From Streptomyces sp. NBC_00683 (GTDB lineage: Bacteria > Actinomycetota > Actinomycetes > Streptomycetales > Streptomycetaceae): a stretch of 64,000 bases of DNA. Location of the stretch: NCBI RefSeq assembly GCF_036226745.1, contig NZ_CP109013.1, positions 310,001 through 374,000 on the forward strand, in the 5' to 3' direction. Positions 11,052-47,397 of this stretch are shown in pieces. A model generated the notes under the pieces. That model saw only the letters and a program-made list of their open reading frames with translations, had not been told where the DNA came from and made no database searches. Each line of letters starts with the position of its first letter. Positions within the stretch are counted from its first letter, which is position 1. Position numbers and translations under genes: made by a program.

Positions 11052-12227
11052 CTACCGATTGCGCAACAACGCGCAGACGAAGTTCTCCTCCACGGTCCGC
11101 AGCCGCTCCAGTAGTTCCGGCTTGTTCAGCTTGTTGACCTGGGTGGTGAGGGAGACCGTCAACGACCGCTTCCCGTCCGGGGTGGCTGCGATCAGCTGTG
11201 TGTAGCCGGGGAAGTTGCCCGTGTGGCCGTACACCACTCCGCAGCGGGTGGTGTACCGGAAGAGGGCCAGACCGGCTTCGTTCCTTCCGGGACCCGCGGG
11301 TTCGGATGCGCCGTTCACCCAGTTGAGCTGCTGTCGGCGTGTCCGGTCGGAGATCAGCCTTCCGCCGGCGTAACCGCGGATGAAGGCCGTCATGTCCTTC
11401 GGCGTCGAGATGATGCCGCCCGATGCCCACACGCCCGACGCACTCAGTGCCTCGCTGACGTCCTCGGGCGGGTCGGGAGGGGTGACGTCGTAGCCGTGCA
11501 TGTACGGCTCGGGCATCCGGTAACCCCGCGGCAGGCTCGTGTTGTGCAGGTCCAACGGGCGGTACACGAGCTGGGTGAGCAGTTCCTCGTAGCGGCGGCC
11601 TGTCACCGCCTCCGACATCAGCGCCACGGCGATGTTGTCGGAGTTGGAGTACGCGTACCGGGACCCCGGACGGAACACCAACGGCTCGTCGGCCACGAAG
11701 TCGAGCAGTCGGCGGGAGTCGAAGTGGCGACGCGGGTTCTCGGCCAGCAGGGCCAGGAACTCCGGGTCCGTGGTGTAGTCCGGGAGTCCGCTGGTGTGGT
11801 TCAGGAGCTGGCGCAGCGTGACCCGATGCCATGCGCGCGGTAGCCGGGGAAGCACCTTGCCGATGGTGTCGCTCAGCCGCAGCTTCCCGCGGTCGACGAG
11901 CTGGAGGGAGACCGCGCCGCTGTACGCCTTGGCCGTGCTGGCGATGCGCATGTGGTCGGTGACCTCGATCGGACGGTCGGTGCCGACCTCGGCGACGCCG
12001 GCCCGGTAGACCTCGGTGCGGGACTCGCGCTTGAGGACGGCAATCACTCCGGGCGGTCCGCCGGGCGCTGTGGTGAGTTCTTGCAACTGGCGTCGCAGTG
12101 CGCGGTTGTCGTCGGCGGGGACGTCCGCGGCGGCTTGGGCCGGGGCGTGCACCAGCCCGGCCATGCAGGCAGCGGCCAGCAGGGCGACAAGGGGGAGGCG
12201 GACCTGCGGGGAGCCGGGAACTGGCAC
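11052..12227 (-). CDS. Secreted beta-lactamase-fold serine hydrolase (D-Ala-D-Ala carboxypeptidase type)
   Basis: 391 residues with a signal peptide (about 1-33). The three active-site motifs of the class C beta-lactamase/DD-peptidase family are present: S97-T-A-K100, Y193-S-N195 and H335-T-G337, plus the family signature LLNHTSGLPDY. It probably trims D-Ala from peptidoglycan stems or hydrolyses related D-peptides or esters outside the cell. GTG start with GAGGAG 7 bases upstream. A single gene; C-terminal residues are basic without a sorting signal. Confidence 0.85.
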   Translation of the reverse strand: MPVPGSPQVRLPLVALLAAACMAGLVHAPAQAAADVPADDNRALRRQLQELTTAPGGPPGVIAVLKRESRTEVYRAGVAEVGTDRPIEVTDHMRIASTAKAYSGAVSLQLVDRGKLRLSDTIGKVLPRLPRAWHRVTLRQLLNHTSGLPDYTTDPEFLALLAENPRRHFDSRRLLDFVADEPLVFRPGSRYAYSNSDNIAVALMSEAVTGRRYEELLTQLVYRPLDLHNTSLPRGYRMPEPYMHGYDVTPPDPPEDVSEALSASGVWASGGIISTPKDMTAFIRGYAGGRLISDRTRRQQLNWVNGASEPAGPGRNEAGLALFRYTTRCGVVYGHTGNFPGYTQLIAATPDGKRSLTVSLTTQVNKLNKPELLERLRTVEENFVCALLRNR

Positions 12228-32362: not shown

Positions 32363-33634
32363 ATGCCGATGCAGCCCTGGTTCTCCGATGCCAAGTTGGG
32401 CATCTTCATCCACTACGGGATCTACGCCGTCGACGGCGTTCCCGAGTCCTGGTCCTTCTACTCGGGCAAGGTCCCCCACGAGCAGTACATGAAGCAGCTC
32501 GACGGCTTCACCGCCTCGAACTACGACCCGAAGGCGTGGGCCGAGGTGTTCGCGAAGGCCGGCGCGAAGTACGCGGTGCTCACCGCCCGGCACCATGACG
32601 GGGTGGCTCTGTGGGACACCGGGCAGGGTGATCTGAACGTCGTGAAGCACACCCCGGCCGCCCGTGACCTGATCGCCGGTTACGCCGAGGCACTGCGGGA
32701 GCAGGGCCTCAAGGTGGGCCTGTACTACTCCCACTCGGACTGGAACCACCCCGACTACGCGAGCGTGGTGCACCCCGACCCGCCGAACGACGACGTGGGC
32801 ACCAACCGCTATGTGACGCCGAAGGACGGTGTCGAGGACCCCGAGGCCTGGGCGCGCTTCCTCTCGTACCGCAACGCCCAGGTCGGCGAGCTCGTCTCGC
32901 GCTACCGCCCCGACCTGCTGTGGTTCGACGGCGAGTGGGAGCGCAGCGAGGACCAGTGGAAGATGCGGGAGCTCTCCGAGGAGATCCTCGCGGGCAACCC
33001 CGACACCGTCCTCAACGCGCGCATGCTGAGCTACGGCGACTACGCCACACCCGAGCAGGGTGTTCCGCTGCGGGCCCCCGACGGGCCGTGGGAGCTGTGC
33101 CTGACGGTCAACGACTCCTGGGGCTACCAGCACCAGGACGACAACCAGAAGTCGGTCGGCAAGCTGGTGCGCTACTTCGCGGAGACCATCGGCATGGGCG
33201 GCAATCTGCTGCTCGACGTGGGCCCGCAGGAGGACGGCACCATCCCTGCCGCCCAGGTCGAGCGCCTCGAGGGCCTCGGTGGCTGGATCGACAAGCACCG
33301 CGGTGCCGTGTACGGAACCGTGGCCGGCCTGCCCGCCGGTCACCACTACGGTCCGAGCACACTGTCCGCCGACCGCCGCACCCTGTATCTGGTCTGCTTC
33401 GACACCCCGCGCGAAACCATCGGGCTGCGCGGCCTGCGGACGCCGGTCAAGCGCGTGAGCGTGGTCGGCACGGGCACCGAGCTGCCCCACCAGGTCATCG
33501 GCGGTCTCGGCGAAGTGCCCGGCGTCACCTGGATCGACGCCCCGGTGAGCGCCGATGTCGACGCGTACGCGACCGTTCTGGCCGTGGAACTCGACGGTGA
33601 ACTGGACCTCTACCGGGGCGCGGGCCGCGACTGA
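32363..33634 (+). CDS. GH29 alpha-L-fucosidase (first copy)
   Basis: 423 residues, no signal peptide, so it should act in the cytoplasm on imported fucosylated oligosaccharides. GH29 hallmarks: N-terminal WFSDAKLGIFIHYGIYAVDGV, TARHHDG (75-80) and LLWFDG with nucleophile D189. The ribosome site is weak. It is divergent from the fucose catabolic operon that would consume the released L-fucose and ends 2 bases before the convergent AraC gene. A same-length paralogue is at 43173. Confidence 0.92.
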   Translation: MPMQPWFSDAKLGIFIHYGIYAVDGVPESWSFYSGKVPHEQYMKQLDGFTASNYDPKAWAEVFAKAGAKYAVLTARHHDGVALWDTGQGDLNVVKHTPAARDLIAGYAEALREQGLKVGLYYSHSDWNHPDYASVVHPDPPNDDVGTNRYVTPKDGVEDPEAWARFLSYRNAQVGELVSRYRPDLLWFDGEWERSEDQWKMRELSEEILAGNPDTVLNARMLSYGDYATPEQGVPLRAPDGPWELCLTVNDSWGYQHQDDNQKSVGKLVRYFAETIGMGGNLLLDVGPQEDGTIPAAQVERLEGLGGWIDKHRGAVYGTVAGLPAGHHYGPSTLSADRRTLYLVCFDTPRETIGLRGLRTPVKRVSVVGTGTELPHQVIGGLGEVPGVTWIDAPVSADVDAYATVLAVELDGELDLYRGAGRD

Positions 33635-33636
33635 GG

Positions 33637-34437
33637 TCAGCCGCTGGCGGCGCGGATCGCGCGCGGGGACGCGCCCAGTTCGCGCCGGCATGCCTTGTTG
33701 AAGGCCTGCAGATCGCCGATACCGACCAGGGCCGCCACGGCGGGGATCGACAGCGTCGACTCCCGGAGCAGGTGCCTGGCCCGCTCCATCCTGCGCCGGC
33801 GGATGTACGCCACCACCGTGCCGCCGGTCTCGGCCCGGAACAGCCGGATGAGGTGGTTGTGCGAGATCCCGGCGGCCGCGGCCACCTCGGGCACGGTCAG
33901 CGGTCCCGCCAGGTGGGACTCGATGTGCGCCACGGCCGCGGCTGCCGCGGCGTGCCCCCGCTCCTCCACCCCGCCCGCCGGCGCCGCAAGGCCGGCGACC
34001 CGCCACAGCGCGGCCCACACCTCGGCCGCGGCCCGGGCGGGGTTGCGCGGGGCCGCCGCGACGGCCTGTTGCAGCAGGTCGGTGAGGATCGGCGTCTCGG
34101 CGCCGGCGTCCTGCATGACCGGAACGGTCAACGGATTGCCGGAATGCGGGAGTTCGAAGTGCACGTAGAGGTGCTCCGACCGCCCGCCGTAACGGAACTC
34201 CACGACCGCCCCGGGCGGCACGAGGCTCACCCGGCCGGGCCGGATGGCATGAACCACACCGTCGACGGTCAGTTCGGCGGCGTACCGGTACAGGTGCAGC
34301 TGCCAGAGGTCCGGAAGCCGGAAGACGTCCCGCAGGCCGGTGGTCCCGTGCACTCCGACGCCAAGGTTCGCCACCCGGGGCGGCAGGTCCAGGCAGAACT
34401 GGACGTGGGAGGCGTTCGGCTCGGTCGTACTCACCAT
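33637..34437 (-). CDS. AraC-family regulator
   Basis: 266 residues: an N-terminal cupin-like sugar-sensing region (about 1-110, with IRPGRVSLVPPGAVVEF) and a C-terminal double HTH (about 165-262, ISHNHLIRLFRAETGGT and IGDLQAFNKACRRELGASPRAIR). Such proteins usually activate sugar genes. Located between the fucosidase and the secreted-enzyme genes, it probably senses fucose or a fucoside. The start codon context (ATGGTG) has no good Shine-Dalgarno sequence, so either ATG or the following GTG may be used. Confidence 0.85.
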   Translation of the reverse strand: MVSTTEPNASHVQFCLDLPPRVANLGVGVHGTTGLRDVFRLPDLWQLHLYRYAAELTVDGVVHAIRPGRVSLVPPGAVVEFRYGGRSEHLYVHFELPHSGNPLTVPVMQDAGAETPILTDLLQQAVAAAPRNPARAAAEVWAALWRVAGLAAPAGGVEERGHAAAAAAVAHIESHLAGPLTVPEVAAAAGISHNHLIRLFRAETGGTVVAYIRRRRMERARHLLRESTLSIPAVAALVGIGDLQAFNKACRRELGASPRAIRAASG

Positions 34438-34596: not shown

Positions 34597-35778
34597 TCAC
34601 TTGACGATCACCGCCCAGCGGGTGTCGCTGAGGCCCGTGCGGATGTGGAGCAGTGCGGTGCCTGCCGTCTGCGTCGCGGCGATCGTCATCGGGAGGGTGG
34701 TGTTCCAGGTGGCGCCCGGGGCCAGGGACGGCACGTTCCAGTACTGCCAGCTGCCGGAGAAGCCCGTGGTCCCGGTGAAGCTCTGCATCTGCGTGGCGGC
34801 CGTGGTCGTGGTCGAGGTGTTGGTGATCGTGACCGGGATGCTGGTCGTGGTGCCGCGGTTCACGATGCAGCTGCCGCTCGGCATCGTCGCCGAGGCCCTC
34901 AACGGGCCGGTGCTGCCGGTCCCGGTGATGACACCCATCTCGTACGAGTGCTGCGATATCCAGGCGCAGGCGTTGGCGTCCCGGATGCTCGGCTCCCAGA
35001 CGACGACGCCGTCCGTCTTGGCCTTCACCGCGGCGAACATGTGCGCCCAGGTGTTGCCCGGCACGAAGGTCTCGGAGGGGAAGGCGGTCGGGCTGACGTA
35101 CGGGTAGATGGGGTGGCTCGGAGCCATCGCGCGGTCACGGGCGACGGAGGCGTCGAGGTTGCTGTCCCAACTGGCGAGTGACTGACCGTCGTTGAAGTAG
35201 GCGCGTGGTGCGAAGCAGTTGAGCAGGTTGTCCGTGTGCAGTTGCTTGATCAGGGCCTGGTTCTGGGTCAGCCAGTCGTAGCCGTAGTGGCAGATGGGGG
35301 CCTGAGGTGCGGCGTTGCGGGTCCAGGTGAGGAGCTGTCGCCACAGGTTGTAGGCGTTGGTGGCCGTCTGACCTGTCGCCACCTGGGTGAGTTCGATCGC
35401 CTCGAAGTCGAGTACGACGGGCGCCGTCGCCACCCCGCCGAACTGGTTGGCGCCCATGTACTCCTTGACCTTGGCCTCGTACGTGGCCTGGCTCGGCAGC
35501 GCACCGCCGTTGGAGTAGCACCCGCCGGTGTCGCAGGTGTAGGCGAACACGTCGTACACGACGGTGGAGCGGGTGGAACCGTACTGCACCAGGTCGGGCC
35601 GGTTGGCGCCGCGCTCGTTGACGTAGACCGGGTAACTCGCGGCGTCGGCCGCCGGTTCGTCGGCCGCGGCGGGGCTGCTGACGACCGGCACAGCGGCCAT
35701 CAGTGCCGCCGCGAGGACCGCCAGTCTGCGCAGCAGTCCTCGCGGGCGGGGGGAAAGGGAGAGTGTGCGGCTCTGCAT
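34597..35778 (-). CDS. Secreted protein, possible glycoside hydrolase barrel with C-terminal Ig-like domain
   Basis: 393 residues with signal peptide (about 1-39). The region about 48-290 reads as an alpha/beta barrel: PVYVNERG, TVVYDVFAY, APVVLDFEAIE (D124, E126, E129 in a D-x-E arrangement like that of hyaluronidase-type barrels), ICHYGYDW, YPYVSPTAF and GVVVWEPS. Residues about 300-393 form an Ig-like sandwich. I do not recognise the family. ATG with AGGAG 5 bases upstream; terminator hairpins bracket the gene. Neighbours suggest action on a fucosylated polysaccharide outside the cell, but this is inference. Confidence 0.6.
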   Translation of the reverse strand: MQSRTLSLSPRPRGLLRRLAVLAAALMAAVPVVSSPAAADEPAADAASYPVYVNERGANRPDLVQYGSTRSTVVYDVFAYTCDTGGCYSNGGALPSQATYEAKVKEYMGANQFGGVATAPVVLDFEAIELTQVATGQTATNAYNLWRQLLTWTRNAAPQAPICHYGYDWLTQNQALIKQLHTDNLLNCFAPRAYFNDGQSLASWDSNLDASVARDRAMAPSHPIYPYVSPTAFPSETFVPGNTWAHMFAAVKAKTDGVVVWEPSIRDANACAWISQHSYEMGVITGTGSTGPLRASATMPSGSCIVNRGTTTSIPVTITNTSTTTTAATQMQSFTGTTGFSGSWQYWNVPSLAPGATWNTTLPMTIAATQTAGTALLHIRTGLSDTRWAVIVK

Positions 35779-35802
35779 CGTGTCTCCTGGGGTCGGAAAG
35801 GG

Positions 35803-35833
35803 CACCGGCCCGCCGCCGTCCGGCGGGCCGGTG
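35803..35833. terminator. Hairpin terminator after the GH16 gene
   Basis: CACCGGCCCGCC (35803-35814) and its exact complement (35822-35833) flank a 7-base loop, 43 bases downstream of the GH16 stop and just before the next gene's ribosome site. Confidence 0.65.
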
Positions 35834-36971: not shown

Positions 36972-38660
36972 TCAGGCCTGGGCTGCTGCGTGCGCCTTGG
37001 CGTACTCGTCGGCGGCCTGGTCGCCGCCCTTGGCCTTCCAGTCCTTGATCGTCGTGTCCCAGCTGGAGAGGGGTCTGCGGCCCATGATGATCGCCTTCAT
37101 GGCGTCCTCCCTGAGCAGCTGCAATTCGTTCAGCTTGGCGTTCATGGTCTTGGAGAGCAGACCCACCGACGGGTCCGCGATGCCGACCTCGGCGATCTCG
37201 GTCTGGAAGGCGTGACGGCGCTCGACGAGGTCGGCCGCGGCCGGGACGGAGGCCGGCAGGAAGAGCACCTGCTGCGAGCAGGCCATGAAGGCGATGCCGA
37301 GGGTGTCCTTGTTGTCGCCGTTGAGCGCCGTCTCGTTCAGCGCCGGGCTGCCGTCGGCGGAACGCTCGAAGTGGGTGCCCTCGACGCCGTAGGTGATGAG
37401 CTCGTACTCCTTGGTGCCGAACGGGGCGGCCATGTAGTCGAGCACCCGCAGGAGGAGCTTGATGCGGTCCTTGGAGGCCTTCTTCAGGACGGTGGTGTAG
37501 TCGGCGCCCGGGGAGAACCAGTGTCCTGGCCGGGCTCCGTTGGAGGGCTTGAACGGACGGACGGTCTCGAGCGTGAAACCATCCTTGATGGCGACGGCGT
37601 TGCCGGTGAAGTCGACGTTGGCCCTGGATACGGTGGCCGTGATGCCGGTCTGGAAGTCGATGCCGAGCGAGGCGTCGTGCGACAGCGGGTCCGCGCGGTA
37701 GACGCCGGCCTGCTTCCACTTCGCGAGCTGCTCGAGACCGGCCCTGAACTCATCGGTTTCGATGTAGGAGTTGAACTGTCCGTCCTTCACCGACCACGCG
37801 TTGGGCGAACCGAAGGCGGGCATGATCGAGTTGAAGCCGAACGCACCGAGACCGGCCACACCCATGCCCCACTGCTTGCGGCCGGAGAGCTGCTGGAGGC
37901 CCTTGGTGAAGTCGTCGACCGCGATCCCGCCGATCTCCGGCACCCAGATTCCGGCCTGCTTCAATCGCTCCAGGTTCGCGGAGAGCGAGTGGCCGATACG
38001 TGCCCGCTCGACCGGTATCCGGTAGATCCTGCCGCCGATGCGACCGGCGGCCTTCCAGGCGTACGTGGGGACGGCGGCGAGGTTGGGGTACGTCTTCACG
38101 GCGTCGCCCGAGAGGAACTCGGTGAGGTCCTGGCACTTTGCGGCGATCAGCTCGGTCGGGTTGGGCAGGTTGGCCGACACGCACATGATGTCCGGCAGTT
38201 CCCCGCCGGCGACCAGCGTCGCGAACTTCTGCTGGCTCTCCATCGCGGGGATCACGACCAGGTCCAGGTCGACGCCGAGCTCCTTGTTCAGCGCCTGCCA
38301 GAGCTTGTGCTTCGCCTTCGCGGTGGGCGGCGCACCCCAGGTGATCGTCCACACCTTCACCTTGGAGCCGTCGCCGGGCTTCTCGGCGACCGACTGCTTC
38401 AGCTCCTTCGGGTACGAGAAGAAGGCCGGCTGCACACCCTTGTCACTCGGGGCGAGGTCGGGCTTCGGGGCGTCCGGCTGGGGTATGTACGTCGGCCACG
38501 GCGCGAGCTTCTTGCCGTCGTTGGTGAGGGCGTTGCCGCCGTCGGACGTGGAGCAGGCGGAGAGCGGGAAGCCCGTGGCGGCCAGCGCGGTGCCGATGCC
38601 GATCGTGCGCAGGACGGATCTGCGGGAGATGCCGGAGGACATGGGGAACCGATCCTTCAT
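36972..38660 (-). CDS. Oligosaccharide ABC transporter binding lipoprotein (LplA/LipO type)
   Basis: 562 residues. SRRSVLRTIGIGTALAATG is a twin-arginine signal followed by lipobox LSAC, so the protein may be exported folded and lipid-anchored. The large size and sequence pattern (VKVWTITWG, ELPDIMCVSANLPNPTELIA, IYRIPVERAR) fit the family of binding proteins for complex oligosaccharides that pair with LplB/YtcP permeases. An ATG six codons downstream (38642) has a comparable ribosome site. Third gene of the operon after the two permeases. The ligand is probably a fucosylated oligosaccharide, by context. Confidence 0.87.
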   Translation of the reverse strand: MKDRFPMSSGISRRSVLRTIGIGTALAATGFPLSACSTSDGGNALTNDGKKLAPWPTYIPQPDAPKPDLAPSDKGVQPAFFSYPKELKQSVAEKPGDGSKVKVWTITWGAPPTAKAKHKLWQALNKELGVDLDLVVIPAMESQQKFATLVAGGELPDIMCVSANLPNPTELIAAKCQDLTEFLSGDAVKTYPNLAAVPTYAWKAAGRIGGRIYRIPVERARIGHSLSANLERLKQAGIWVPEIGGIAVDDFTKGLQQLSGRKQWGMGVAGLGAFGFNSIMPAFGSPNAWSVKDGQFNSYIETDEFRAGLEQLAKWKQAGVYRADPLSHDASLGIDFQTGITATVSRANVDFTGNAVAIKDGFTLETVRPFKPSNGARPGHWFSPGADYTTVLKKASKDRIKLLLRVLDYMAAPFGTKEYELITYGVEGTHFERSADGSPALNETALNGDNKDTLGIAFMACSQQVLFLPASVPAAADLVERRHAFQTEIAEVGIADPSVGLLSKTMNAKLNELQLLREDAMKAIIMGRRPLSSWDTTIKDWKAKGGDQAADEYAKAHAAAQA

Positions 38661-38717: not shown

Positions 38718-39632
38718 TCAGCTCTTGACGGCGCCGGTCAGGACGCCCTTGGTGAAGTAGCGCTGGATGAAGGGGTAGACACACAGGATCGGCACGGTGG
38801 CCAGCACCACGACCGCCATGTTCACGGTCTGCGGGGCGAACTGGATCTGCTCGCTGACACCGCCCTGGACCGAGATCAGCGAGTTCTGGCTCTGCACCAC
38901 ATAGGTGCGCATCCAGGTCTGCAGCGGCCACATCGTCGCCTGGTCGGTGTAGAGGATCGCGCGGAAGAAGTCGTTCCAGTAGCCCACGGCGTAGAACAGG
39001 CCGACCACCGCGATCACCGCCTTCGACAGCGGAAGGACGATCGTGACCAGGGTGCGCAGCTCACCCGCGCCGTCGATCTTCGCCGACTCGAAGAGCTCGG
39101 CCGGGATGCCCTGGAAGAAGCCGCGCATCACGACCAGGTTGAACGCGTTGATCAGTACGGGCAGGAACAGCGCCCAGTAGGTGTTGCGCATGCCCATGCC
39201 GTTGACCACCAGGAAGCTGGGGATCATGCCGGCTGGGAAGAGGAAGGTGAACAGGATGAGCAGCATGACGGGCTTGCCGCCCACGACTCCCGGCCGGGCC
39301 AGGGCGTAGGCCAGCATGATCGTGCACACCAGGCTGAACGTCGTACCGATGACCGTGACGCCTCCGGAGACCAGCATCGCCCGGGTGATCTGGCCACCCG
39401 AGAAGATCAAGTCGTAGGCGTTGGTGGTCCACCGGTCGGGCCACAGCGCATAGCCGCCATTGGCGATCACCTGCTTGTCGGGGGCGAAACTGGTCGCCAG
39501 CACCACCCAGAACGGGACGATCACCACCAGTACCGTGAAGACCAGGGTCAGGCCCTTGAATCCCTGGGTGATCGGCCTGGGCTCCTCCATCCAGGCGGGT
39601 CGCTCGGCGCGCTGCATCACATCGGCGCTCAT
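38718..39632 (-). CDS. Sugar ABC transporter permease (YtcP type)
   Basis: 304 residues with six transmembrane segments and the EAA-like loop AELFESAKIDGAGELRTLVTIVLPLSKA that contacts the ATPase. Pairs with the permease encoded just upstream; the ATG shares one base with that gene's stop (TGATG). No ATP-binding gene is present, so a shared ATPase of the MsiK kind is presumed. Confidence 0.9.
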   Translation of the reverse strand: MSADVMQRAERPAWMEEPRPITQGFKGLTLVFTVLVVIVPFWVVLATSFAPDKQVIANGGYALWPDRWTTNAYDLIFSGGQITRAMLVSGGVTVIGTTFSLVCTIMLAYALARPGVVGGKPVMLLILFTFLFPAGMIPSFLVVNGMGMRNTYWALFLPVLINAFNLVVMRGFFQGIPAELFESAKIDGAGELRTLVTIVLPLSKAVIAVVGLFYAVGYWNDFFRAILYTDQATMWPLQTWMRTYVVQSQNSLISVQGGVSEQIQFAPQTVNMAVVVLATVPILCVYPFIQRYFTKGVLTGAVKS

Positions 39633-40615
39633 CAGCGGTACACCCCCTGCTCGCCCATCCTGTGAGCGATCTTGTTCGCGGTGAAGACGAGACAGGCGCC
39701 GATGACGCCCTTGAACAGCGCGGCCGCTGCGGCCACGCCCCAGTTCTGGTCACGTATGCCGTGGTAGAAGACATAGGTGTCGATGACCTCGGCCACGTCG
39801 GGGCCGAACGCGTCGCGCTGGAGCAGGATCTGCTCGAAGCCGACCGACAGGATGTCGCCGAGCCGCAGGATCAGCAGCAGGAAGATCACCGCCCGCAGCG
39901 AAGGCAGCGTGATGTGCCAGAAGCGCCGCCAGGGACCGGCTCCGTCGAGCGCCGAGGCCTCGTAGAGCCCCTCGTCGATCTGGGCGAGCGCGGCGAGGAA
40001 GATGATGGTGCCCCAGCCGCATTCCTTCCAGATCAGCTCCATGACCATGAGCGGCTTGAACAGATCGGGGTTGCCGATGACATCGACCAGGTGGCCGTCG
40101 GAGCCGCCGAGCGTGCCGTTGATGACTCCGTCCGCGCCGATCACCTGCTGGAACAGGGCGACCACGATCACCCACGAGATGAAGTGGGGCAGATACACCA
40201 CGCTCTGCACGAACCTGCGCACCCGCCCCTGCATCAGGCTGTGCAGGAGCAGTGCGAGTGCCAGCGGGATCGGGAAGTAGAACACCAACTGCACCAGGGA
40301 CAGAACCACGGTGTTCAGGGCCGCGTCCCAGAACGCCGCCTCGCCGAACAGGGTCCGGAAGTTCGCGAATCCCACCCATGGGCTGTCCACCACACCCAGG
40401 AACGGCATGTAGTCCTTGAACGCGATGACGTTCCCGAACAACGCGCCGTACTGGAAGATCAGGAAGAAGACCACCCCCGGCGCCATCAGCAACAGCAGCG
40501 CCCGGTCCCGGTGCAGGCGGTGGCGCAGCGCACTCTTCGGCCGCTCCGCCTTCCCGGGTGGCTTCGAGACGACCGCTATCGGTTGCGCCTCCGGCCCCTT
40601 CGTCGTCACCGACAT
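39632..40615 (-). CDS. Sugar ABC transporter permease (LplB type)
   Basis: 327 residues, six transmembrane segments, coupling loop EGLYEASALDGAGPWRRFWHITLPSLRA. The ATG at 40613-40615 (AAGGGG 6 bases upstream) is preferred to longer in-frame starts. First gene of the permease-permease-binding protein operon. About 200 bases upstream is one copy of the 28-base operator, so it is likely repressed by the DeoR/LacI-type regulator encoded next to it. Confidence 0.9.
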   Translation of the reverse strand: MSVTTKGPEAQPIAVVSKPPGKAERPKSALRHRLHRDRALLLLMAPGVVFFLIFQYGALFGNVIAFKDYMPFLGVVDSPWVGFANFRTLFGEAAFWDAALNTVVLSLVQLVFYFPIPLALALLLHSLMQGRVRRFVQSVVYLPHFISWVIVVALFQQVIGADGVINGTLGGSDGHLVDVIGNPDLFKPLMVMELIWKECGWGTIIFLAALAQIDEGLYEASALDGAGPWRRFWHITLPSLRAVIFLLLILRLGDILSVGFEQILLQRDAFGPDVAEVIDTYVFYHGIRDQNWGVAAAAALFKGVIGACLVFTANKIAHRMGEQGVYR

Positions 40616-40818
40616 GGAGATCCCCTTCTCGCTGCGCGCCCGACCGTGACCACACCCGGCCGGTGCGCGCCGATCGTCGCGGCAGGCGCGGATCGTCACG
40701 GGGTGGTCGGGTGGTCGGGCAATGAACTCGGCCTCAGAGATCCGATGTCTCGGCGCTCCGGGCGACGCTCCGAATAGTGGCGAGCGTTCCGATCGCAGTC
40801 AAGGGGGTGGGATCGATG

Positions 40819-40846
40819 TTTCGATCCTTCGATCATAACGATCGAA
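40819..40846. promoter_or_regulatory. 28-base operator, copy A (transporter side)
   Basis: Pattern TTTCGATC-n-TTCGATC-nTnA-CGATCGAA. It is identical to copy B at 42064-42091 at 25 of 28 positions. TTCGATC and GATCGAA form an inverted repeat with 5 bases between, preceded by an extra direct copy of TTCGATC. It lies between the regulator stop and the transporter operon. Confidence 0.8.
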
Positions 40847-40850
40847 TTAA

Positions 40851-41987
40851 CTAGCCCGTAGGCCCTGCGCCACAGGATCGCCGCACGCGCAGTTCGGGCA
40901 ACAGCGCGAGGTGCCTGCGGGCGGTGGTCCGTCCGGGGGCGTCGGCCGCCTCCCGGATCCGCCGGAGGAGCAGGTGCACGGCCGCCTGGCCGACTTCGTA
41001 CTTCGGGGGCGCCACGGCTGTCAGCGGGAGATCCGAGAGGGCCGCCACCTCGTCGTCGTAGGCGACGATCGCCACGTCCTCGGGCACCTTGAGCTGCGGC
41101 TCCATGGCGCGCAGCTGCTGCACCAGGAGGATCGCGTCGGTGTCGCTGAGCACCAGCGCCGCGGTCACCTTCCCCTCCGCGACCGCCTCGGCCAGCTGCA
41201 CGGCGGCCGCCTCGACACGGCTCATGTCCAGGGCACCCAGGTAGAGGTCGATGGGATCGATCGGCGGCTCGGCGATTCCGATGGTCCGCAGTGCGGTCTC
41301 ATAGCCGTCCCGCACCTGCACACCCGTCGCGCTCGCGCCCGCGACGAGCGCGATGTTCCGGTGCCCGAGTGATGCCAGGTGCCGCACCGCGAGGCCCGCG
41401 CCAGCGTAGTGGTCCGAGCAGACGTGGTCGAACTCGGCGGCCCGCGTTCCCGGCACCGGCCGGCGTTCGAGCAGCACCGTCGGTACCCCGAAGTCGAGGT
41501 CGGGCGCGTCCTGCTCGGCGCCGTCCGACATCCAGCCGGGAGTGAGCAGCAGTCCGGCCACTCCGGATTCGAGCAGTCGGCGGGCCTGCACCTCGTCCTG
41601 GCCGGGGACATACCCCGAGAAGCCGAGCACGAGACGGCCTCCGGCCTCCTGCACGGCATCCCTGACGCCTCGCACGATCTCGCCGAAGTAGTGCTGGGAC
41701 TGGGGGACGACCAGCCCGATGGCAGGCCCCTCGCCTGCGGCGACGGGTGCGGGAGCGGTGATCGGGTTCTGCAGCGGACCCCGCCCGGCCGACACGGGGG
41801 CACCCGGCCACGAGACCGCGCCGCGAACACGGTCCAGCCGTCCGGCCGACGACAGCACCTCGACGTCGCGGCGCACGGTCACGGTGGACATGCCCAAGTG
41901 ATCGGCCAGATCGGTGACGCGCAGGGTCCCGTGTTCGCGCACGAGTTCAAGGATCCGCTCGTGGCGTTCGCCGACCGTGTATCGCAC
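40851..41987 (-). CDS. Chimeric regulator: DeoR-type HTH with LacI-type sugar sensor
   Basis: 378 residues. Residues 1-60 are a DeoR winged HTH (RHERILELVREHG, TVTVRRDVEVLSSAGRLDRVRG), while about 85-370 are the periplasmic-binding-protein fold of LacI/GalR regulators (IGLVVPQSQHYFGEIVRGV, GVAGLLLTPG, HRNIALVAG, VAIVAYDDEVAALSDLPLTAV). It should bind DNA unless a sugar ligand is present. GTG start with AGGAG 5 bases upstream. Flanked on both sides by copies of the same 28-base site, which are its probable operators, implying self-regulation and control of the transporter and fucosidase/lyase genes. Confidence 0.85.
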   Translation of the reverse strand: MRYTVGERHERILELVREHGTLRVTDLADHLGMSTVTVRRDVEVLSSAGRLDRVRGAVSWPGAPVSAGRGPLQNPITAPAPVAAGEGPAIGLVVPQSQHYFGEIVRGVRDAVQEAGGRLVLGFSGYVPGQDEVQARRLLESGVAGLLLTPGWMSDGAEQDAPDLDFGVPTVLLERRPVPGTRAAEFDHVCSDHYAGAGLAVRHLASLGHRNIALVAGASATGVQVRDGYETALRTIGIAEPPIDPIDLYLGALDMSRVEAAAVQLAEAVAEGKVTAALVLSDTDAILLVQQLRAMEPQLKVPEDVAIVAYDDEVAALSDLPLTAVAPPKYEVGQAAVHLLLRRIREAADAPGRTTARRHLALLPELRVRRSCGAGPTG

Positions 41988-42063
41988 ACCTGCTCCTGGG
42001 TTCGTACGGCTGCTTCGTTGCCTGAGCAGCCTACTCCGGCGATCGCTCAGCGCATTTTCGGAT

Positions 42064-42091
42064 TTTCGATCGTTCGATCTTGACGATCGAA
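42064..42091. promoter_or_regulatory. 28-base operator, copy B (fucosidase side)
   Basis: Same TTTCGATC-n-TTCGATC-nTnA-CGATCGAA pattern as copy A with three differences. Here TTCGATCG and CGATCGAA are a perfect 8-base inverted pair. It ends 23 bases before the ATG of the dehydrogenase and lies 76 bases from the regulator start, so it can serve both divergent genes. Confidence 0.8.
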
Positions 42092-42114
42092 ACGCCCATC
42101 CCTACTGTCGCAGC

Positions 42115-43176
42115 ATGACCGCGCTGACCACGGACTCGGAAGAGTCCCCACCGCCGGCCGCGGAATCCCGCCGCCGCCCCCGCGTGCTGCTGGCGATGGA
42201 GCCCTCGCTCGCCCCCTCGCTCCTCAGTGAGCGGACGCGGCGCCGGCTCGCACAGGTCGCCGACTGCGACCCCGATTTCGTGGCGTACGACTTCTCCGAC
42301 GACACGGCGGTGGCCGCGCTCGGAGCGGCCGAGGTCCTGCTGACCTTCTGGGGCTGCCCCGTCCTCGACGAGGAGGTTCTGGCCGCGGCGCCCCGGCTGC
42401 GCGCGGTCGTGCACGCCGCCGGGACCGTAAAGGGCCATGTCACAGCCGACTGCTGGGAACGTGGGATCACCGTGTCGTCGGCAGCCGCGGCCAACGCCCT
42501 GCCGGTGGCCGAGTACACCGTGGCCGCCATCCTGTTCTCCAACAAGCGGATCCTGGAGGTGCGCGAGGCGTACCGCCGCGTCCGCACCGAGCACGACTGG
42601 CGTGCGGCCTTCCCCGAGGTCGGCAACTACCGCCGCACCGTCGGCATCATCGGGGCCTCGCGCATCGGCCGCCGTGTCGTCGAGTTGCTCGCTCCGTACG
42701 CGCTCGACATCGTCGTCCACGATCCGTACCTCTCGGACGCCGAGGCCGCACATCTCGGTGTGCGCACCGTCGGACTCGACGAACTGTGCGAGACGTCCGA
42801 TGTCATCAGTCTGCACGCGCCGGAACTTCCCACCACCCGCCATCTGCTCGATCGCCGCAGGCTCGGCCTGATGCGCGACGGAGCCACCGTCATCAACACC
42901 TCGCGCGGCTCGCTCCTCGACCAGGCCTCGCTCACCGAGGAGTTGGTGGCCGGACGGCTGCACGCGGTCATCGATGTCACCGAGCCCGAGGTGCTGCCCG
43001 CCGACTCCCCTCTCTACGACCTGCCCAATGTCCTGCTCACCCCGCACTACGCCGGATCGTTCGGCAACGAACTGCAGCGCATGGCGGACTCCGCCGTGGA
43101 GGAGGTCGCCCGGTTCGCCGCCGGACTGCCCTTCGCACACCCGGTCAGCCGCACGGAACTGGAGCACACGGCGTGA
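42115..43176 (+). CDS. D-2-hydroxyacid dehydrogenase family protein
   Basis: 353 residues. Two Rossmann-like domains as in phosphoglycerate/hydroxypyruvate dehydrogenases: NAD-binding GIIGASRIGR, substrate/catalytic region INTSRGSLLDQASL (Arg), DVTEPEVLPADSPLY (Glu) and LLTPHYAGS (His). It should reduce or oxidise a 2-keto/2-hydroxy acid with NAD(P)H. First gene behind operator copy B, and its stop overlaps the fucosidase start by 4 bases, so it belongs to glycan breakdown; which acid it handles is unknown. The start is the ATG just after the operator. Confidence 0.85.
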   Translation: MTALTTDSEESPPPAAESRRRPRVLLAMEPSLAPSLLSERTRRRLAQVADCDPDFVAYDFSDDTAVAALGAAEVLLTFWGCPVLDEEVLAAAPRLRAVVHAAGTVKGHVTADCWERGITVSSAAAANALPVAEYTVAAILFSNKRILEVREAYRRVRTEHDWRAAFPEVGNYRRTVGIIGASRIGRRVVELLAPYALDIVVHDPYLSDAEAAHLGVRTVGLDELCETSDVISLHAPELPTTRHLLDRRRLGLMRDGATVINTSRGSLLDQASLTEELVAGRLHAVIDVTEPEVLPADSPLYDLPNVLLTPHYAGSFGNELQRMADSAVEEVARFAAGLPFAHPVSRTELEHTA

Positions 43177-44444
43177 CCATGCAGCCCTGGTTCTCCGAGG
43201 CCAAGCTCGGAATCTTCGTCCACTGGGGGATCTACGCGGTCGACGGAGTCGGCGAGTCGTGGTCGTTCTTCGGCGGGGACGTCCCGTACGAGACGTACAT
43301 GGCTCAGCTGAACGGCTTCACCGCCTCCCGCTATCGCCCCGACGACTGGGCGAAGCTCTTCCGTAAGGCCGGTGCCAAGTACGCCGTACTGACCACCAAG
43401 CACCATGACGGCGTCGCACTCTGGGACACCGCGTGCACGGATCTCTCGGTGCCCCGGCGCAGTCCGGTGGCCCGCGACCTCGTCGGCCCGTTCGCGGACG
43501 CGCTTCGCCGGCACGACCTGCGCGTCGGTCTGTACTTCTCGCACAACGACTGGAGCCACCCCGACTACCCGAGTGTCCGGCCGTCGAAGCTGCACAGGCC
43601 CTGGGTCGACAACCGCTATGCGATGCCCGCACCGGGTGACGAGGACCCCGAGCGCTGGGAGCGCTATCTCGAGGTGGTGCACCGCGGCCAGATACGCGAG
43701 CTGATCGAGGGCTACCGGCCGGATCTGCTGTGGTTCGACGGCGCGTGGGAGCGGGACGAACGGCAGTGGCGGATGAAGGAACTCCGCGAGGAAATACTCG
43801 CTTCGAGTCCCGAAACCGTCCTCAACGGACGCATGCTCGGCCACGGCGACTTCGCGACGGCCGAACTCGGGGTGCCGATCACGCGGCCCGAGGGACCCTG
43901 GGAACTCTGCTACACGATCAACGACCTGTGGGGCTACCAGCCGCAGGACACCCGGCACAAGAGCGTGCGCGAGCTGGTGCGGGTCTTCGCAGAGACCATC
44001 GGCCACGGCGGCAACCTGCTGCTCAACACGGGCCCCAGGGAGGACGGCACGATCCGTCCCGAGCACGCGCAGCGCCTCGAAGGGCTCGGCCGGTGGATCA
44101 GCCGCAACCAGGAGGCCGTGTATCCGACGGAGGCGGGCCTGCCGTACGGGCACCACTACGGCCCGTCCATGCTCTCCAAGGACCGCCGCACGCTCTTCCT
44201 CGTCTGCTTCGACACGCCTCGCGTCTTCGTCGAACTCCGCGGAGTGCACAACACCGTGAAGAGGATCTCCGTCCTCGGGACGGGCCAGGAACTCGGGCAC
44301 CGGGTCGTCGGCGGATTCCCGAGCCGCCGCGTCCCCGGCGTGGTCCGCATCGAGGTACCGACCGTCTCCGACCCGTACGCCACCGTGCTGGCCATCGAAC
44401 TCGACGGGGAGCTCGACCTGTACACGGGCAGCGGCGAGGGCTGA
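43173..44444 (+). CDS. GH29 alpha-L-fucosidase (second copy)
   Basis: 423 residues, same length as the copy at 32363 and colinear with it from WFSEAKLGIFVHWGIYAVDG to the end. HHDG (77-80) and LLWFDG with D189 are retained. No signal peptide, so cytoplasmic. The GTG at 43173 gives a 4-base overlap with the preceding stop, a GGAG 8 bases upstream and the same N-terminal length as the paralogue; an ATG two codons later is possible. Probably translated together with the dehydrogenase and controlled by operator copy B. Confidence 0.92.
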   Translation: MTMQPWFSEAKLGIFVHWGIYAVDGVGESWSFFGGDVPYETYMAQLNGFTASRYRPDDWAKLFRKAGAKYAVLTTKHHDGVALWDTACTDLSVPRRSPVARDLVGPFADALRRHDLRVGLYFSHNDWSHPDYPSVRPSKLHRPWVDNRYAMPAPGDEDPERWERYLEVVHRGQIRELIEGYRPDLLWFDGAWERDERQWRMKELREEILASSPETVLNGRMLGHGDFATAELGVPITRPEGPWELCYTINDLWGYQPQDTRHKSVRELVRVFAETIGHGGNLLLNTGPREDGTIRPEHAQRLEGLGRWISRNQEAVYPTEAGLPYGHHYGPSMLSKDRRTLFLVCFDTPRVFVELRGVHNTVKRISVLGTGQELGHRVVGGFPSRRVPGVVRIEVPTVSDPYATVLAIELDGELDLYTGSGEG

Positions 44445-44535: not shown

Positions 44536-47397
44536 ATGCCCAGAGCCATACCCTCCCGCGTCAGCCGGGCCGCCGTCGCCGGCGCGGCCATGGCGGGAGC
44601 ACTCGCCGTATCCCTTCCTGCGCCGCACGCCTATGCGGCCGAATCCCTGGTCGTCAACGGTGACTTCGAGCAGGTCGCGGCCGACGGCGGCATCGTCGGG
44701 TGGCCGCAGAGCGAGAACCGCGACAGCGGCCGCGCCACCGTCATCGATGGTGCGGGCCCCGACGGCAGCCGGGCCCTCGCGCTCGACCTCGGCAGCGCAG
44801 CGGACAAGGCCGCGGTCGGCCAGGACATCCCGGTCGCCGACAACACCGGACTCCAGGCGTACCGGATCAGCTTCGACGAACGCGCCGTCGGCCTTTCCGG
44901 CTACGGCGGCGACCTGTGGGCCCGCGGTTTCGGCCATGACGCCCTCGTCGGCCGGATCTCCGGCACCACGGGCTGGCGCAAGGCGAATGCGGTTGTCCTG
45001 GCCCGGCCCGGGACCAAGGCCGTCAACCTGCTGCTCGCCCTCGAGCAGTCCACCGGACGGATGCTGATCGACAACGTCAGGGTCGAGCACATCGACGGCA
45101 ACGCCGTCGGTGCCAACGTCCAGCCGACCGGTGCCGTCCAGCTCTCCTGGTACTTCGCCGCGGTCGGGGGAACCCCCGCCTCGTACCAGGTGCACCGCTC
45201 CACCCGCGCGGACTTCACTCCGGGGAGCAAGACCCTGATCCGGGAAGTCCCCGACGCGTGGACCGCCGAGGACGGTTCCGCCCGGCCGGGCAGCCGCTAC
45301 ACGTACAAGGTCGTCGCGCTGGCCGCCGACGGCTCGACGCTGGGCACCACCGCCCCGGAGACCGTCACCACCCCGTCGGTGTTCCTCGACGAGCAGCGGA
45401 TCGATGTGCTGACGGCCACGGAGGACAGGGAGGGCGCCCGCCTGGCCTGGCGCCTGAAGGCCGGCAGCAAGGCTCCGCTGACGGTGTACGCAGGCGGCTC
45501 GGAGGTCGCCGACGGGAAGCTCCACAAGGCCCGCAAGGTCGGTACCTTCCACGCCACCACTGGCGGCGTCACGCTGTCGGACAGTGCCTGCGGGGGCGCC
45601 ACCGGCTTCGCCGTCACCGGCAAGGACGGCAAGGTCCTGGCCACTGCGAGCCTGGCCGGTCTGCAGCATCCACGGATGGGAGTGACCGACAGCAAGCTCG
45701 CCGACGTGCGCAGCGCCATCCAGCAGGACGGCGCGCCCAGATCCACGTACAACGGCCTGGTGAGCCGCGTCGCCAAGGGCCTGCCCGCCTACAACTACCG
45801 CCCGGGCGAGGCACAGGCGTCCTGGGCGCAGGACGCCGCCCTCCTCTACCAGGTCAGCCAGGACCCGGCGTACGCGCAGACCGCCTACGACGCGCTGATC
45901 GAGTCCGGCCGGACCATGCCGTTCGTCAACGGCACCGCATACGCAGGGGCGGCAGCACTGGAGACCGCCAACGCCGCGGCTCCGCTGGCGGCCGCCTACG
46001 ACTGGGCCTACCCGGCATGGACCCCCGAGCAGCGCACCGAGGCGCAGAAGGTGCTGCAGCGCGTCGCCGCCTACCTGGAGGTCTCGTACCACCCGAACTT
46101 CGATCTGCCGGTCAAGCAGAGCAACTGGACGGCGGTGGTCCGCGGCGGCGAACTGGCGCTGCGCCTCGCGGTGCGCGGCGACGGCCCGTTCGACCTGCAG
46201 GAGTACCGGATCCCGCAGCTCATCGACGCGATGGGCAGGCACCTGGACACCGCCTACTCGGAGACCGGCTGGGACCAGGAGGGCCTGGACTACTTCAGCT
46301 ACGGGCTCGGCGTCGGCGGCCCCGGCGTGACCGGCTCGATCGACTCGGGCATCGGTGCGCTCAAGGCGAAGTGGCAGCGTCCGGGGTTCGCCAGCCTCCT
46401 GCTGCACAGCAGCTCGCTGCAGCCGGACAAGGCCCGCCTGCAATGGGGGGTCGGCACCACCACGGGTGCGCTCCCCCTGCCGGGCCTGATCTTCACCCAG
46501 GTGCCCGCCGACCAGCAGGCGGCGTGGCTGTGGCAGTACGAGAAGTCGGGCGGTGGAGGCGGAGCCTACGAACTGCTCAACTACCCGTACGGTGTCACTC
46601 CGCAGGACCCGGACGAGGCCCCCGCCGCGGTGCGTCAGGCCCTGCTCGACGACCACGGCGGCTCGTACCTGTTCCGCAACCGGTACCAGGACAAGGACGA
46701 CGTCCTGGTCGGCGCGCAGAACCGCAACGACAACCACATCGGCTGGGGCGGCTTCGACACCTTCGCCCTCTCCCTGGTCAGCCATGACGTGACCTGGGCG
46801 CAGCAGCCGGCCAAGAACTACGCCAAGCGGGAGCTGTTCTCCAAGCCGCTCATCGACGGCTTCCCGGAGAAGCGCAGCACGGACTCCATCGCGGGCAAGG
46901 GCCAGACGCTCGAGTCCCGTGGCTACCCGGGCCAGGGCGGCGGCTTCGTCTCCTTCGACAGCCGCCTCAACTACGAGGTGACGAAGGCACGTCGGGACCT
47001 GGCGGTGGACATGCGCCCGGCCGTCGGTGCGGACTCCGTCGTCGCTGTCCACGACTCCTTCGCGGACAGTGCCTCGCACACGTACGCCTGGCAGCTCGCA
47101 CCCGAGGCAGGCACCGCGATCACCTTCGGCGAGGAGGAGTCCGGCGCACGGACTTTCCTGTTCAAGAAGGGCGACAGCTGGCTGAAGGGCTGGGTGCTGA
47201 GTCCGGAGGGCGCCGAACTGTCCACGGAGAAGGGCGCGTTCAAGGTCTCCCGGACGGGCAAGGACGCCGACTTCAGGATCGTCCTCGCCGTCGGCAGGGG
47301 CACTCCGCCCACCGCCACCGCATCGGGCGGCGAACTCACCCTGGGCGCCACCACCTACGACCTGGACAACCTGCGGGACTTCGACCCTTCGCGGTAG
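44536..47397 (+). CDS. Large secreted protein resembling a polysaccharide lyase
   Basis: 953 residues. Signal peptide (about 1-34), a CBM-like sandwich (about 36-190, LVVNGDFEQVA start), one or two FN3-like modules (about 195-370), a mainly helical region (about 380-640) and a strand-rich C-terminal half (about 640-953). Helical toroid plus beta-sandwich is the layout of alginate/heparinase/chondroitin-type lyases. Possible active-site segments are KQSNWTAVVRGGELALRLA (N530), SETGWDQEGLDYFSYG (about 573-590) and HSSS (about 625). I cannot match it to a named family. It follows the fucosidase by 91 bases with GGAGAGAT before the ATG and may be in the same operon. Substrate unknown; a uronic-acid-containing fucosylated glycan is inference. 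Confidence 0.6.
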   Translation: MPRAIPSRVSRAAVAGAAMAGALAVSLPAPHAYAAESLVVNGDFEQVAADGGIVGWPQSENRDSGRATVIDGAGPDGSRALALDLGSAADKAAVGQDIPVADNTGLQAYRISFDERAVGLSGYGGDLWARGFGHDALVGRISGTTGWRKANAVVLARPGTKAVNLLLALEQSTGRMLIDNVRVEHIDGNAVGANVQPTGAVQLSWYFAAVGGTPASYQVHRSTRADFTPGSKTLIREVPDAWTAEDGSARPGSRYTYKVVALAADGSTLGTTAPETVTTPSVFLDEQRIDVLTATEDREGARLAWRLKAGSKAPLTVYAGGSEVADGKLHKARKVGTFHATTGGVTLSDSACGGATGFAVTGKDGKVLATASLAGLQHPRMGVTDSKLADVRSAIQQDGAPRSTYNGLVSRVAKGLPAYNYRPGEAQASWAQDAALLYQVSQDPAYAQTAYDALIESGRTMPFVNGTAYAGAAALETANAAAPLAAAYDWAYPAWTPEQRTEAQKVLQRVAAYLEVSYHPNFDLPVKQSNWTAVVRGGELALRLAVRGDGPFDLQEYRIPQLIDAMGRHLDTAYSETGWDQEGLDYFSYGLGVGGPGVTGSIDSGIGALKAKWQRPGFASLLLHSSSLQPDKARLQWGVGTTTGALPLPGLIFTQVPADQQAAWLWQYEKSGGGGGAYELLNYPYGVTPQDPDEAPAAVRQALLDDHGGSYLFRNRYQDKDDVLVGAQNRNDNHIGWGGFDTFALSLVSHDVTWAQQPAKNYAKRELFSKPLIDGFPEKRSTDSIAGKGQTLESRGYPGQGGGFVSFDSRLNYEVTKARRDLAVDMRPAVGADSVVAVHDSFADSASHTYAWQLAPEAGTAITFGEEESGARTFLFKKGDSWLKGWVLSPEGAELSTEKGAFKVSRTGKDADFRIVLAVGRGTPPTATASGGELTLGATTYDLDNLRDFDPSR

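What the first reader, a model, noticed from the sequence alone, without database searches (positions are those of the whole stretch)
40819..42091. Near-identical 28-bp operator on both sides of the chimeric regulator
Copies at 40819-40846 and 42064-42091 share 25 of 28 bases, each with a TTCGATC/GATCGAA inverted repeat and an extra direct TTCGATC. One precedes the transporter operon; the other lies between the regulator and the dehydrogenase/fucosidase/lyase genes. This defines a regulon directly from sequence.
Basis: seen in the sequence. Interest (0 to 1): 0.8.

Follow-up and report, generated by a model that had tools for sequence, protein, structure and literature searches.

The report
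Paired operators flanking a sugar-cluster repressor
Two almost identical short DNA control sites, found nowhere else in this bacterium's genome, sit on either side of a sugar-sensing regulator gene and very probably let it switch a neighbouring transporter and a set of fucose-glycan-degrading enzymes on and off together.

Summary
The sites match at 25 of 28 bases; 2,000 dinucleotide shuffles of the two intergenic regions reached at most 22. The 27-bp tripartite motif, at up to 3 mismatches, occurs twice in the 8.52-Mb genome, only here.

The regulator joins a DeoR-type HTH to a LacI-type sugar-binding domain. Two relatives with orthologous clusters keep such sites at equivalent places; a third syntenic relative, G008, does not.

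Refinement: the 28-mer is not the whole unit. At the dehydrogenase promoter it covers a putative -35 box. At the transporter promoter it is the upstream part of a five-GATC array reaching past the putative -35 box. Across 33 family loci, TTGAC with at least two GATC nearby occurs in 48 of 66 flanks, against a shuffle mean of 2.7; many of these loci are close relatives.

So this is one member of a widespread Streptomyces repressor family with a shared half-site core. In this genome the motif marks this cluster alone. Binding, inducer and looping are untested. Interest is moderate.

The parts
40819..40846 (.). Site 1: tripartite operator (TTCGATC-1-TTCGATC-5-GATCGAA), about -52 to -79 from the predicted transporter start
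   Evidence: sequence; only two hits in window and genome; distance is my estimate from the putative -10 box
40790..40846 (-). Extended compound control element of the transporter promoter: five GATC at -41, -32, -24, -12 and +8 relative to the start of TTGAC
   Evidence: positions; G204 and G327
40774..40802 (-). Putative transporter promoter: TTGACT (40802-40797), 17 bp, CACTAT (40779-40774)
   Evidence: TTGAC and 17-bp spacing also in G204 and G327 (sequences, counted by eye); 8 of 12 consensus bases by my count, below the threshold, which found none
42064..42091 (.). Site 2: tripartite operator, about -51 to -24 from the predicted dehydrogenase start; covers the putative -35 box
42080..42108 (+). 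Putative dehydrogenase-operon promoter: TTGACG (42080-42085), 17 bp, TACTGT (42103-42108); six bases to the ATG, so a leaderless transcript is predicted
   Evidence: same spacing in G204 and G327 (counted by eye); not called by the consensus scan
40851..41987 (-). Regulator, 378 aa: N-terminal HTH_DeoR (residues 8-58) + C-terminal Peripla_BP_3 (201-372)
39632..40615 (-). ABC transporter permease 1
   Evidence: BPD_transp_1; best match UgpA, below its cut-off
38718..39632 (-). ABC transporter permease 2
   Evidence: BPD_transp_1; best match UgpE, below its cut-off
36972..38660 (-). Lipoprotein-like solute-binding protein, 562 aa
   Evidence: SBP_bac_8, 26.7 bits, just under cut-off 27; N-terminus
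42115..43176 (+). D-2-hydroxyacid dehydrogenase, 353 aa
   Evidence: 2-Hacid_dh_C
43179..44444 (+). GH29 alpha-L-fucosidase, 421 aa, no visible signal peptide
   Evidence: Alpha_L_fucos; N-terminus
44536..47397 (+). 953-aa secreted-type protein with heparinase-II/PL17-like fold and N-terminal carbohydrate-binding-module-like fold; candidate polysaccharide lyase

Best explanation
The two sites are operators of the DeoR-HTH/LacI-ligand-domain regulator encoded between them. Without its sugar ligand the regulator binds the GATC-core half-sites at both places. At site 2 it covers the -35 box of the dehydrogenase-fucosidase-lyase operon; at site 1 it binds an array that runs from upstream of the -35 box into the -35/-10 spacer of the transporter operon. 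It blocks both, and probably its own gene, which diverges from site 2. A fucosylated, perhaps uronic-acid-containing oligosaccharide or a breakdown product taken up by the transporter releases it. Shown from sequence: the sites, their uniqueness, their conservation with gene order in two relatives, the domain make-up, the family-wide half-site enrichment. Inferred: binding, repression, operon limits, promoter boxes, ligand. In this genome the motif marks this cluster only.
For: Sites and chance level. Only two copies in 8.52 Mb; 13 of 20 weaker palindromes fetched, all 13 within ORFs. Of 392 same-genus genomes, 4 have the 27-mer at up to 3 mismatches: own (2 sites), G204 (2), G327 (1), G176 (1); none of 12 window proteins matched G176's 3-kb stretch. 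5 of 392 have the regulator at E<=1e-95: own, G204, G327, G008, G275. So 3 of 5 with the regulator have the motif, against 1 of 387 without (2 of 4 if the own genome is left out; G176 has a 43% relative elsewhere). Synteny of regulator, two permeases, SBP, fucosidase and lyase in G204, G327 and G008. Promoter-proximal alignment with TTGAC. A further G327 copy at L057:7028-7046 lies upstream of a PL8 lyase gene. Half-site enrichment in the family. In C. bescii, sites of LacI- and DeoR-family regulators within 5' UTRs or overlapping promoter elements were taken as repressor sites (PMC8579813, passages seen).
Against: No binding or expression data. G008 has the syntenic cluster and a near-identical recognition helix (ISTVTARRDVDVL against ISTVTARRDAETL in G204) but no such operator, so motif and protein do not track perfectly. 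G275 (51% identity) has the regulator without the other cluster genes in its 20-kb stretch. Some copies in relatives are imperfect: dehydrogenase/fucosidase-side palindromes have 1 mismatch in G204 and 2 in G327, and G327's transporter-side array has altered half-sites. The sigma-70 consensus scan called no promoter. Three other relatives aligning over nearly the whole regulator are encoded in the same genome and could bind.
Confidence: 0.82

Rival explanations
1. The sites belong to another regulator, either one of the three full-length relatives elsewhere in the genome or the AraC-type regulator at 33637-34437.
For: Relatives at G000:C1:707908, 7190103 and 1207045 align over nearly the whole regulator, and two of them have GATC/TTGAC arrays by their own genes.
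Against: The 27-mer at up to 3 mismatches is absent from the flanks of these relatives and goes with this regulator's orthologues across the genus; the relatives have differently spaced arrays.
Confidence: 0.08
2. Mixed mode: site 2 represses by occlusion, while site 1, upstream of the transporter -35 box, acts mainly as an activator site or as a loop partner for site 2 (centres 1,245 bp apart).
For: The site 1 palindrome lies outside the putative core promoter, whereas site 2 covers the putative -35 box; LacI-type proteins can loop (recalled).
Against: The conserved array at site 1 continues to a GATC between -35 and -10, which fits occlusion as well. Looping was not tested.
Confidence: 0.25
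3. Chance similarity or a dispersed repeat without regulatory role.
For: One genome without the cluster near the hit (G176) has a 3-mismatch match, so chance hits seem to occur at about one in 392 genomes.
Against: 25 of 28 identity beyond 2,000 shuffles, two copies 1.2 kb apart and nowhere else, conservation in relatives.
Confidence: 0.02

Closest known systems
LacI/GalR-family local sugar repressors
   Same: C-terminal sugar-binding domain (Peripla_BP_3, Peripla_BP_1), gene next to ABC transporter and glycosidase genes, palindromic sites near putative promoters
   Different: No LacI-type HTH among the Pfam matches; the HTH is DeoR-type; the operator has an extra direct half-site and lies in multi-site arrays
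DeoR/GlpR-family repressors
   Same: DeoR-type HTH; tandem half-sites. Predicted DeoR-type RhaR motifs have two imperfect direct repeats of 10-11 bp periodicity (PMC3870299, passages seen)
   Different: No classical DeoR C-terminal sensor domain among the Pfam matches; within the 28-mer the GATC cores are 8 and 9 bp apart and one half-site is inverted
AraR of Bacillus subtilis (GntR-type HTH on a LacI-type domain; recalled). The solved arabinose repressor 3tb6 matches the ligand domain by sequence
   Same: A foreign HTH joined to a LacI-type sugar domain
   Different: GntR rather than DeoR HTH; different operator (recalled)

Membership tests
LacI/GalR family | C-terminal periplasmic-binding-protein-like ligand domain | tested here: met
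   PF13377 88.2 bits, PF00532 45.1 bits
LacI/GalR family | N-terminal LacI-type HTH (PF00356, recalled accession) | tested here: not met
   Not among the 7 Pfam families matched at E<=0.001; HTH_DeoR matched instead
DeoR/GlpR family | N-terminal DeoR-type HTH | tested here: met
   PF08220 52.4 bits, cut-off 21
DeoR/GlpR family | C-terminal DeoR sensor domain (PF00455, recalled accession) | tested here: not met
   Not among the 7 Pfam families matched at E<=0.001; the C-terminal matches are LacI-type
Streptomyces DeoR-LacI chimera group (my grouping) | Same two-domain make-up | tested here: met
   680 proteins at E<=1e-60 among 7,996 scored; of the 120 listed I counted 2 short ones (P0036, P0038) lacking PF08220 or PF13377
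Streptomyces DeoR-LacI chimera group (my grouping) | At least two GATC near TTGAC in the gene flanks | tested here: met
   Both flanks here (L022); 48 of 66 flanks over 33 loci, none in 4 loci
Operator of this regulator | Direct binding by the purified protein | not testable with these tools
   none

The most novel reading that the evidence does not exclude
Streptomyces DeoR-LacI chimeras form a large repressor family that reads one common half-site (GATC core, TTCGATC/TGATC) with very similar recognition helices, and tells its own promoters from those of paralogues by the spacing and orientation of half-sites on a grid anchored to the TTGAC box rather than by half-site sequence; many of the genes are bracketed by such arrays, so the local cluster is controlled from both sides.
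Probability: 0.35. Interest if true: 0.6.

Novelty: new member of a known kind. Interest (0 to 1): 0.4.

Why it matters
It gives a concrete, testable operator and target set for a class of hybrid sugar regulators that is common in the genus: 77 of 199 sampled same-genus genomes have a relative at E<=1e-60. It also raises a clear question: how full-length relatives in one genome, with similar recognition helices and GATC-core arrays, avoid cross-talk. The controlled cluster holds a candidate polysaccharide lyase with no Pfam match above its cut-off.

Tried and rejected
Palindrome with a 4-base gap: my first pattern was mis-spaced and found nothing; the correct gap is 5. A named-organism scan of genome contigs with the single regulator sequence returned one distant 28% hit and no orthologue. 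A 395-genome relatives search, overlapping the earlier sets, found 3 genomes at E<=1e-100 and no new orthologue. The consensus promoter/terminator scan of 40600-42150 found none; the promoter boxes rest on conservation and spacing only. The weaker genome-wide palindromes were taken as chance after all 13 fetched places lay within ORFs; 7 further two-mismatch places were not fetched. G176's 3-mismatch hit was set aside as chance because none of 12 window proteins matched its 3-kb stretch; only that stretch was looked at. Reading six other intergenic stretches of the cluster (fucosidase-lyase, permease-SBP, SBP-GH16, GH16-402 aa, 402 aa-AraC, upstream of fucosidase 2) showed no such array, at most two GATC each. 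A PDB sequence search with the 953-aa protein found nothing at E<=0.001.

Literature: (search listings and abstract starts) showed no paper that I recognised as describing this motif or a Streptomyces DeoR-LacI chimera. Passages were read only in PMC3870299 and PMC8579813. This covers only the held open-licence library, and not every listed paper was opened.

Limits of the family count: the 33 loci are the matches for which loci were returned (30, 3 more), include this locus and its orthologues, and several are near-identical in their flanks, so 48 of 66 is not 48 independent cases; 4 of 33 loci (L023, L025, L027, L044) have no such element. The element classes were defined by me from the sequences; one class requires TTCGATCA somewhere in the element, so its GATC content is partly built in, though not its position. 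In one search seven of the 33 loci were displayed on the wrong strand; the k-mer counts are strand-collapsed, and strand was checked. The expected counts come from the regulator coding sequences and count positions, not flanks.

Full report
What was checked. Between the intergenic regions 40616-40850 and 41988-42114 the best 28-base ungapped match is 25, and 2,000 pairs of dinucleotide-preserving shuffles gave 15 to 22. The 27-mer TTCGATCNTTCGATCNNNACGATCGAA with up to 3 mismatches hits only these two places in the window and in the 8,519,659-base genome, with no hit for the reversed control. The bare palindrome is much less specific: in the window at up to 3 mismatches it is not above shuffles, and genome-wide there are 2 exact, 2 one-mismatch and 18 two-mismatch places. 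13 of these 20 weaker places were returned as loci, and all 13 lie within ORFs of 182 aa or more; long ORFs are common by chance in GC-rich DNA, so this is support, not proof. It is the tripartite arrangement that marks the site.

The genes. The regulator (40851-41987, minus) has an HTH_DeoR domain at residues 8-58 and Peripla_BP_3 at 201-372. Beyond it on the same strand are two BPD_transp_1 permeases and a lipoprotein-like solute-binding protein. Divergent from it are a D-2-hydroxyacid dehydrogenase, a GH29 alpha-L-fucosidase without a visible signal peptide, and a 953-aa secreted-type protein. No ATPase was seen among the proteins scanned; Streptomyces transporters of this type often share one ATPase (recalled). 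Protein names place the genome in Streptomyces: the nearest regulator listed, 97% identical, is from Streptomyces sp. NPDC058463.

Conservation. Of 392 same-genus genomes, 5 have the regulator at E<=1e-95: own, G204 (66%), G327 (62%), G008 (61%), G275 (51%). G204, G327 and G008 have the permease, SBP, fucosidase and lyase genes around it. The dehydrogenase aligns over 330 of 353 residues in G327, is a short remnant in G204 (47 residues aligned) and was not detected in the G008 stretch; in G275's 20-kb stretch only the regulator matched. The 27-mer occurs in 4 of 392 genomes: own (2), G204 (2), G327 (1), G176 (1). G176's hit has 3 mismatches and none of 12 window proteins matched its 3-kb stretch; that genome has a 43% regulator relative elsewhere. 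Thus 3 of 5 genomes with the regulator at that threshold have the motif, against 1 of 387 without. In G204 both sites sit in the same two intergenic regions, 1.3 kb apart. In G327 the dehydrogenase-side copy has two palindrome mismatches, the transporter side has the array with altered half-sites, and an extra good copy (L057:7028-7046) precedes a polysaccharide lyase family 8 gene, so the regulon may have grown there. G008 has TCTTGACGATGGAAA at the fucosidase side but no GATCGAA array, although its recognition helix is nearly that of G204. This counts against a simple one-motif rule and is unexplained.

Architecture. Alignment shows that the 28-mer is part of promoter-anchored elements. Dehydrogenase side: GATC at -12, -4 and +5 relative to TTGAC, and TACTGT 17 bp after the hexamer; a wider window adds a GATC at -39 here. 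G204 has -16, -12, -4, +5, +9, +17 and G327 -39, -16, -8, -4, +17. TACTGT ends six bases before the ATG at 42115, so the usual start distance falls on the ATG and a leaderless message is predicted (inference; six bases also in G327, eight in G204, counted). Transporter side, read on the minus strand: GATC at -41, -32, -24, -12 and +8, and CACTAT 17 bp after the hexamer. G204 has -40, -31, -23, -12, +8, +32 and G327 -43, -39, -30, -22, -10, +8. These -10 boxes fall below the threshold of the consensus scan, which called nothing.

The family. Of 199 same-genus genomes, 77 have a relative at E<=1e-60. In the flanks of 33 family loci, besides GC-rich words, the commonest 7-mers are TCGATCA (49 of 66 flanks, 8.1 expected at the coding rate), GATCGAA (37, 0.9) and TCTTGAC (35, 0.3). 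TTGAC with two or more GATC from 45 bases before to 40 after occurs in 48 of 66 flanks: both flanks in 19 loci, one in 10, none in 4; 100 shuffles gave a mean of 2.71 and a maximum of 7. Many loci are close relatives, so this is not 48 independent cases. Element classes, drawn by me, differ in GATC spacing but keep offsets within a class: -31 and -20 in 13 of 13 elements of one class; -40, -20 and +9 in 13, 14 and 14 of 15 of another. The own genome has four regulators that align over nearly the whole query, this one included; two of the other three show GATC/TTGAC arrays with other spacings, the third has two GATC without TTGAC. Recognition helices are similar (STVTVRRDVE, SAVTLRRDVE, SVVTLRRDVE; the fourth, SRATVRRDLL, differs more). 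From this comes the most novel reading: specificity by spacing. It is not tested here, and G008 shows that near-identical helices can go with different flanks.

Verdict. It is a new member of a known kind, with a family-level pattern worth testing. Interest 0.4.

Noticed in passing
window 44536-47397 (+): 953-aa protein named 'hypothetical' or 'fibronectin type-III domain-containing' in sources; 22 proteins at E<=1e-40 among 7,993 scored, all with Streptomyces names; no Pfam hit at E<=0.001, weak Hepar_II_III_C in 7 of 22 relatives, no PDB sequence match; model matches PL17/heparinase II/GAG-lyase folds plus a CBM-like domain. Candidate new polysaccharide lyase family.
   Followed up: partly
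L057:7028-7046: In relative G327 an extra operator copy precedes a polysaccharide lyase family 8 gene (within L057:7100-9541), an apparent added regulon member.
   Followed up: partly
L052:9179-9319: In relative G204 only a short dehydrogenase remnant (47 residues aligned, 55% identity) lies between operator and fucosidase; none was detected in the G008 stretch. The dehydrogenase may be dispensable in this cluster.
   Followed up: partly
L058:9660-9920 and 11056-11300: G008 keeps the cluster and a near-identical recognition helix but lacks the GATCGAA operators; the transporter-side sequence instead has AAGTCTT repeats. Unexplained.
   Followed up: no
window 42103-42117: Putative -10 box ends six bases before the dehydrogenase ATG, so a leaderless transcript is predicted; the same distance in G327, eight bases in G204.
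   Followed up: no
window 32363-34437: A second GH29 fucosidase gene and a convergent AraC-type regulator gene lie in the same region; the 213 bases upstream of that fucosidase hold no such operator array.
   Followed up: no
window 34597-35805 (-): 402-aa secreted-type protein with no Pfam hit at E<=0.001; conserved in the clusters of G204 (85%) and G008 (65%). Function unknown.
   Followed up: no
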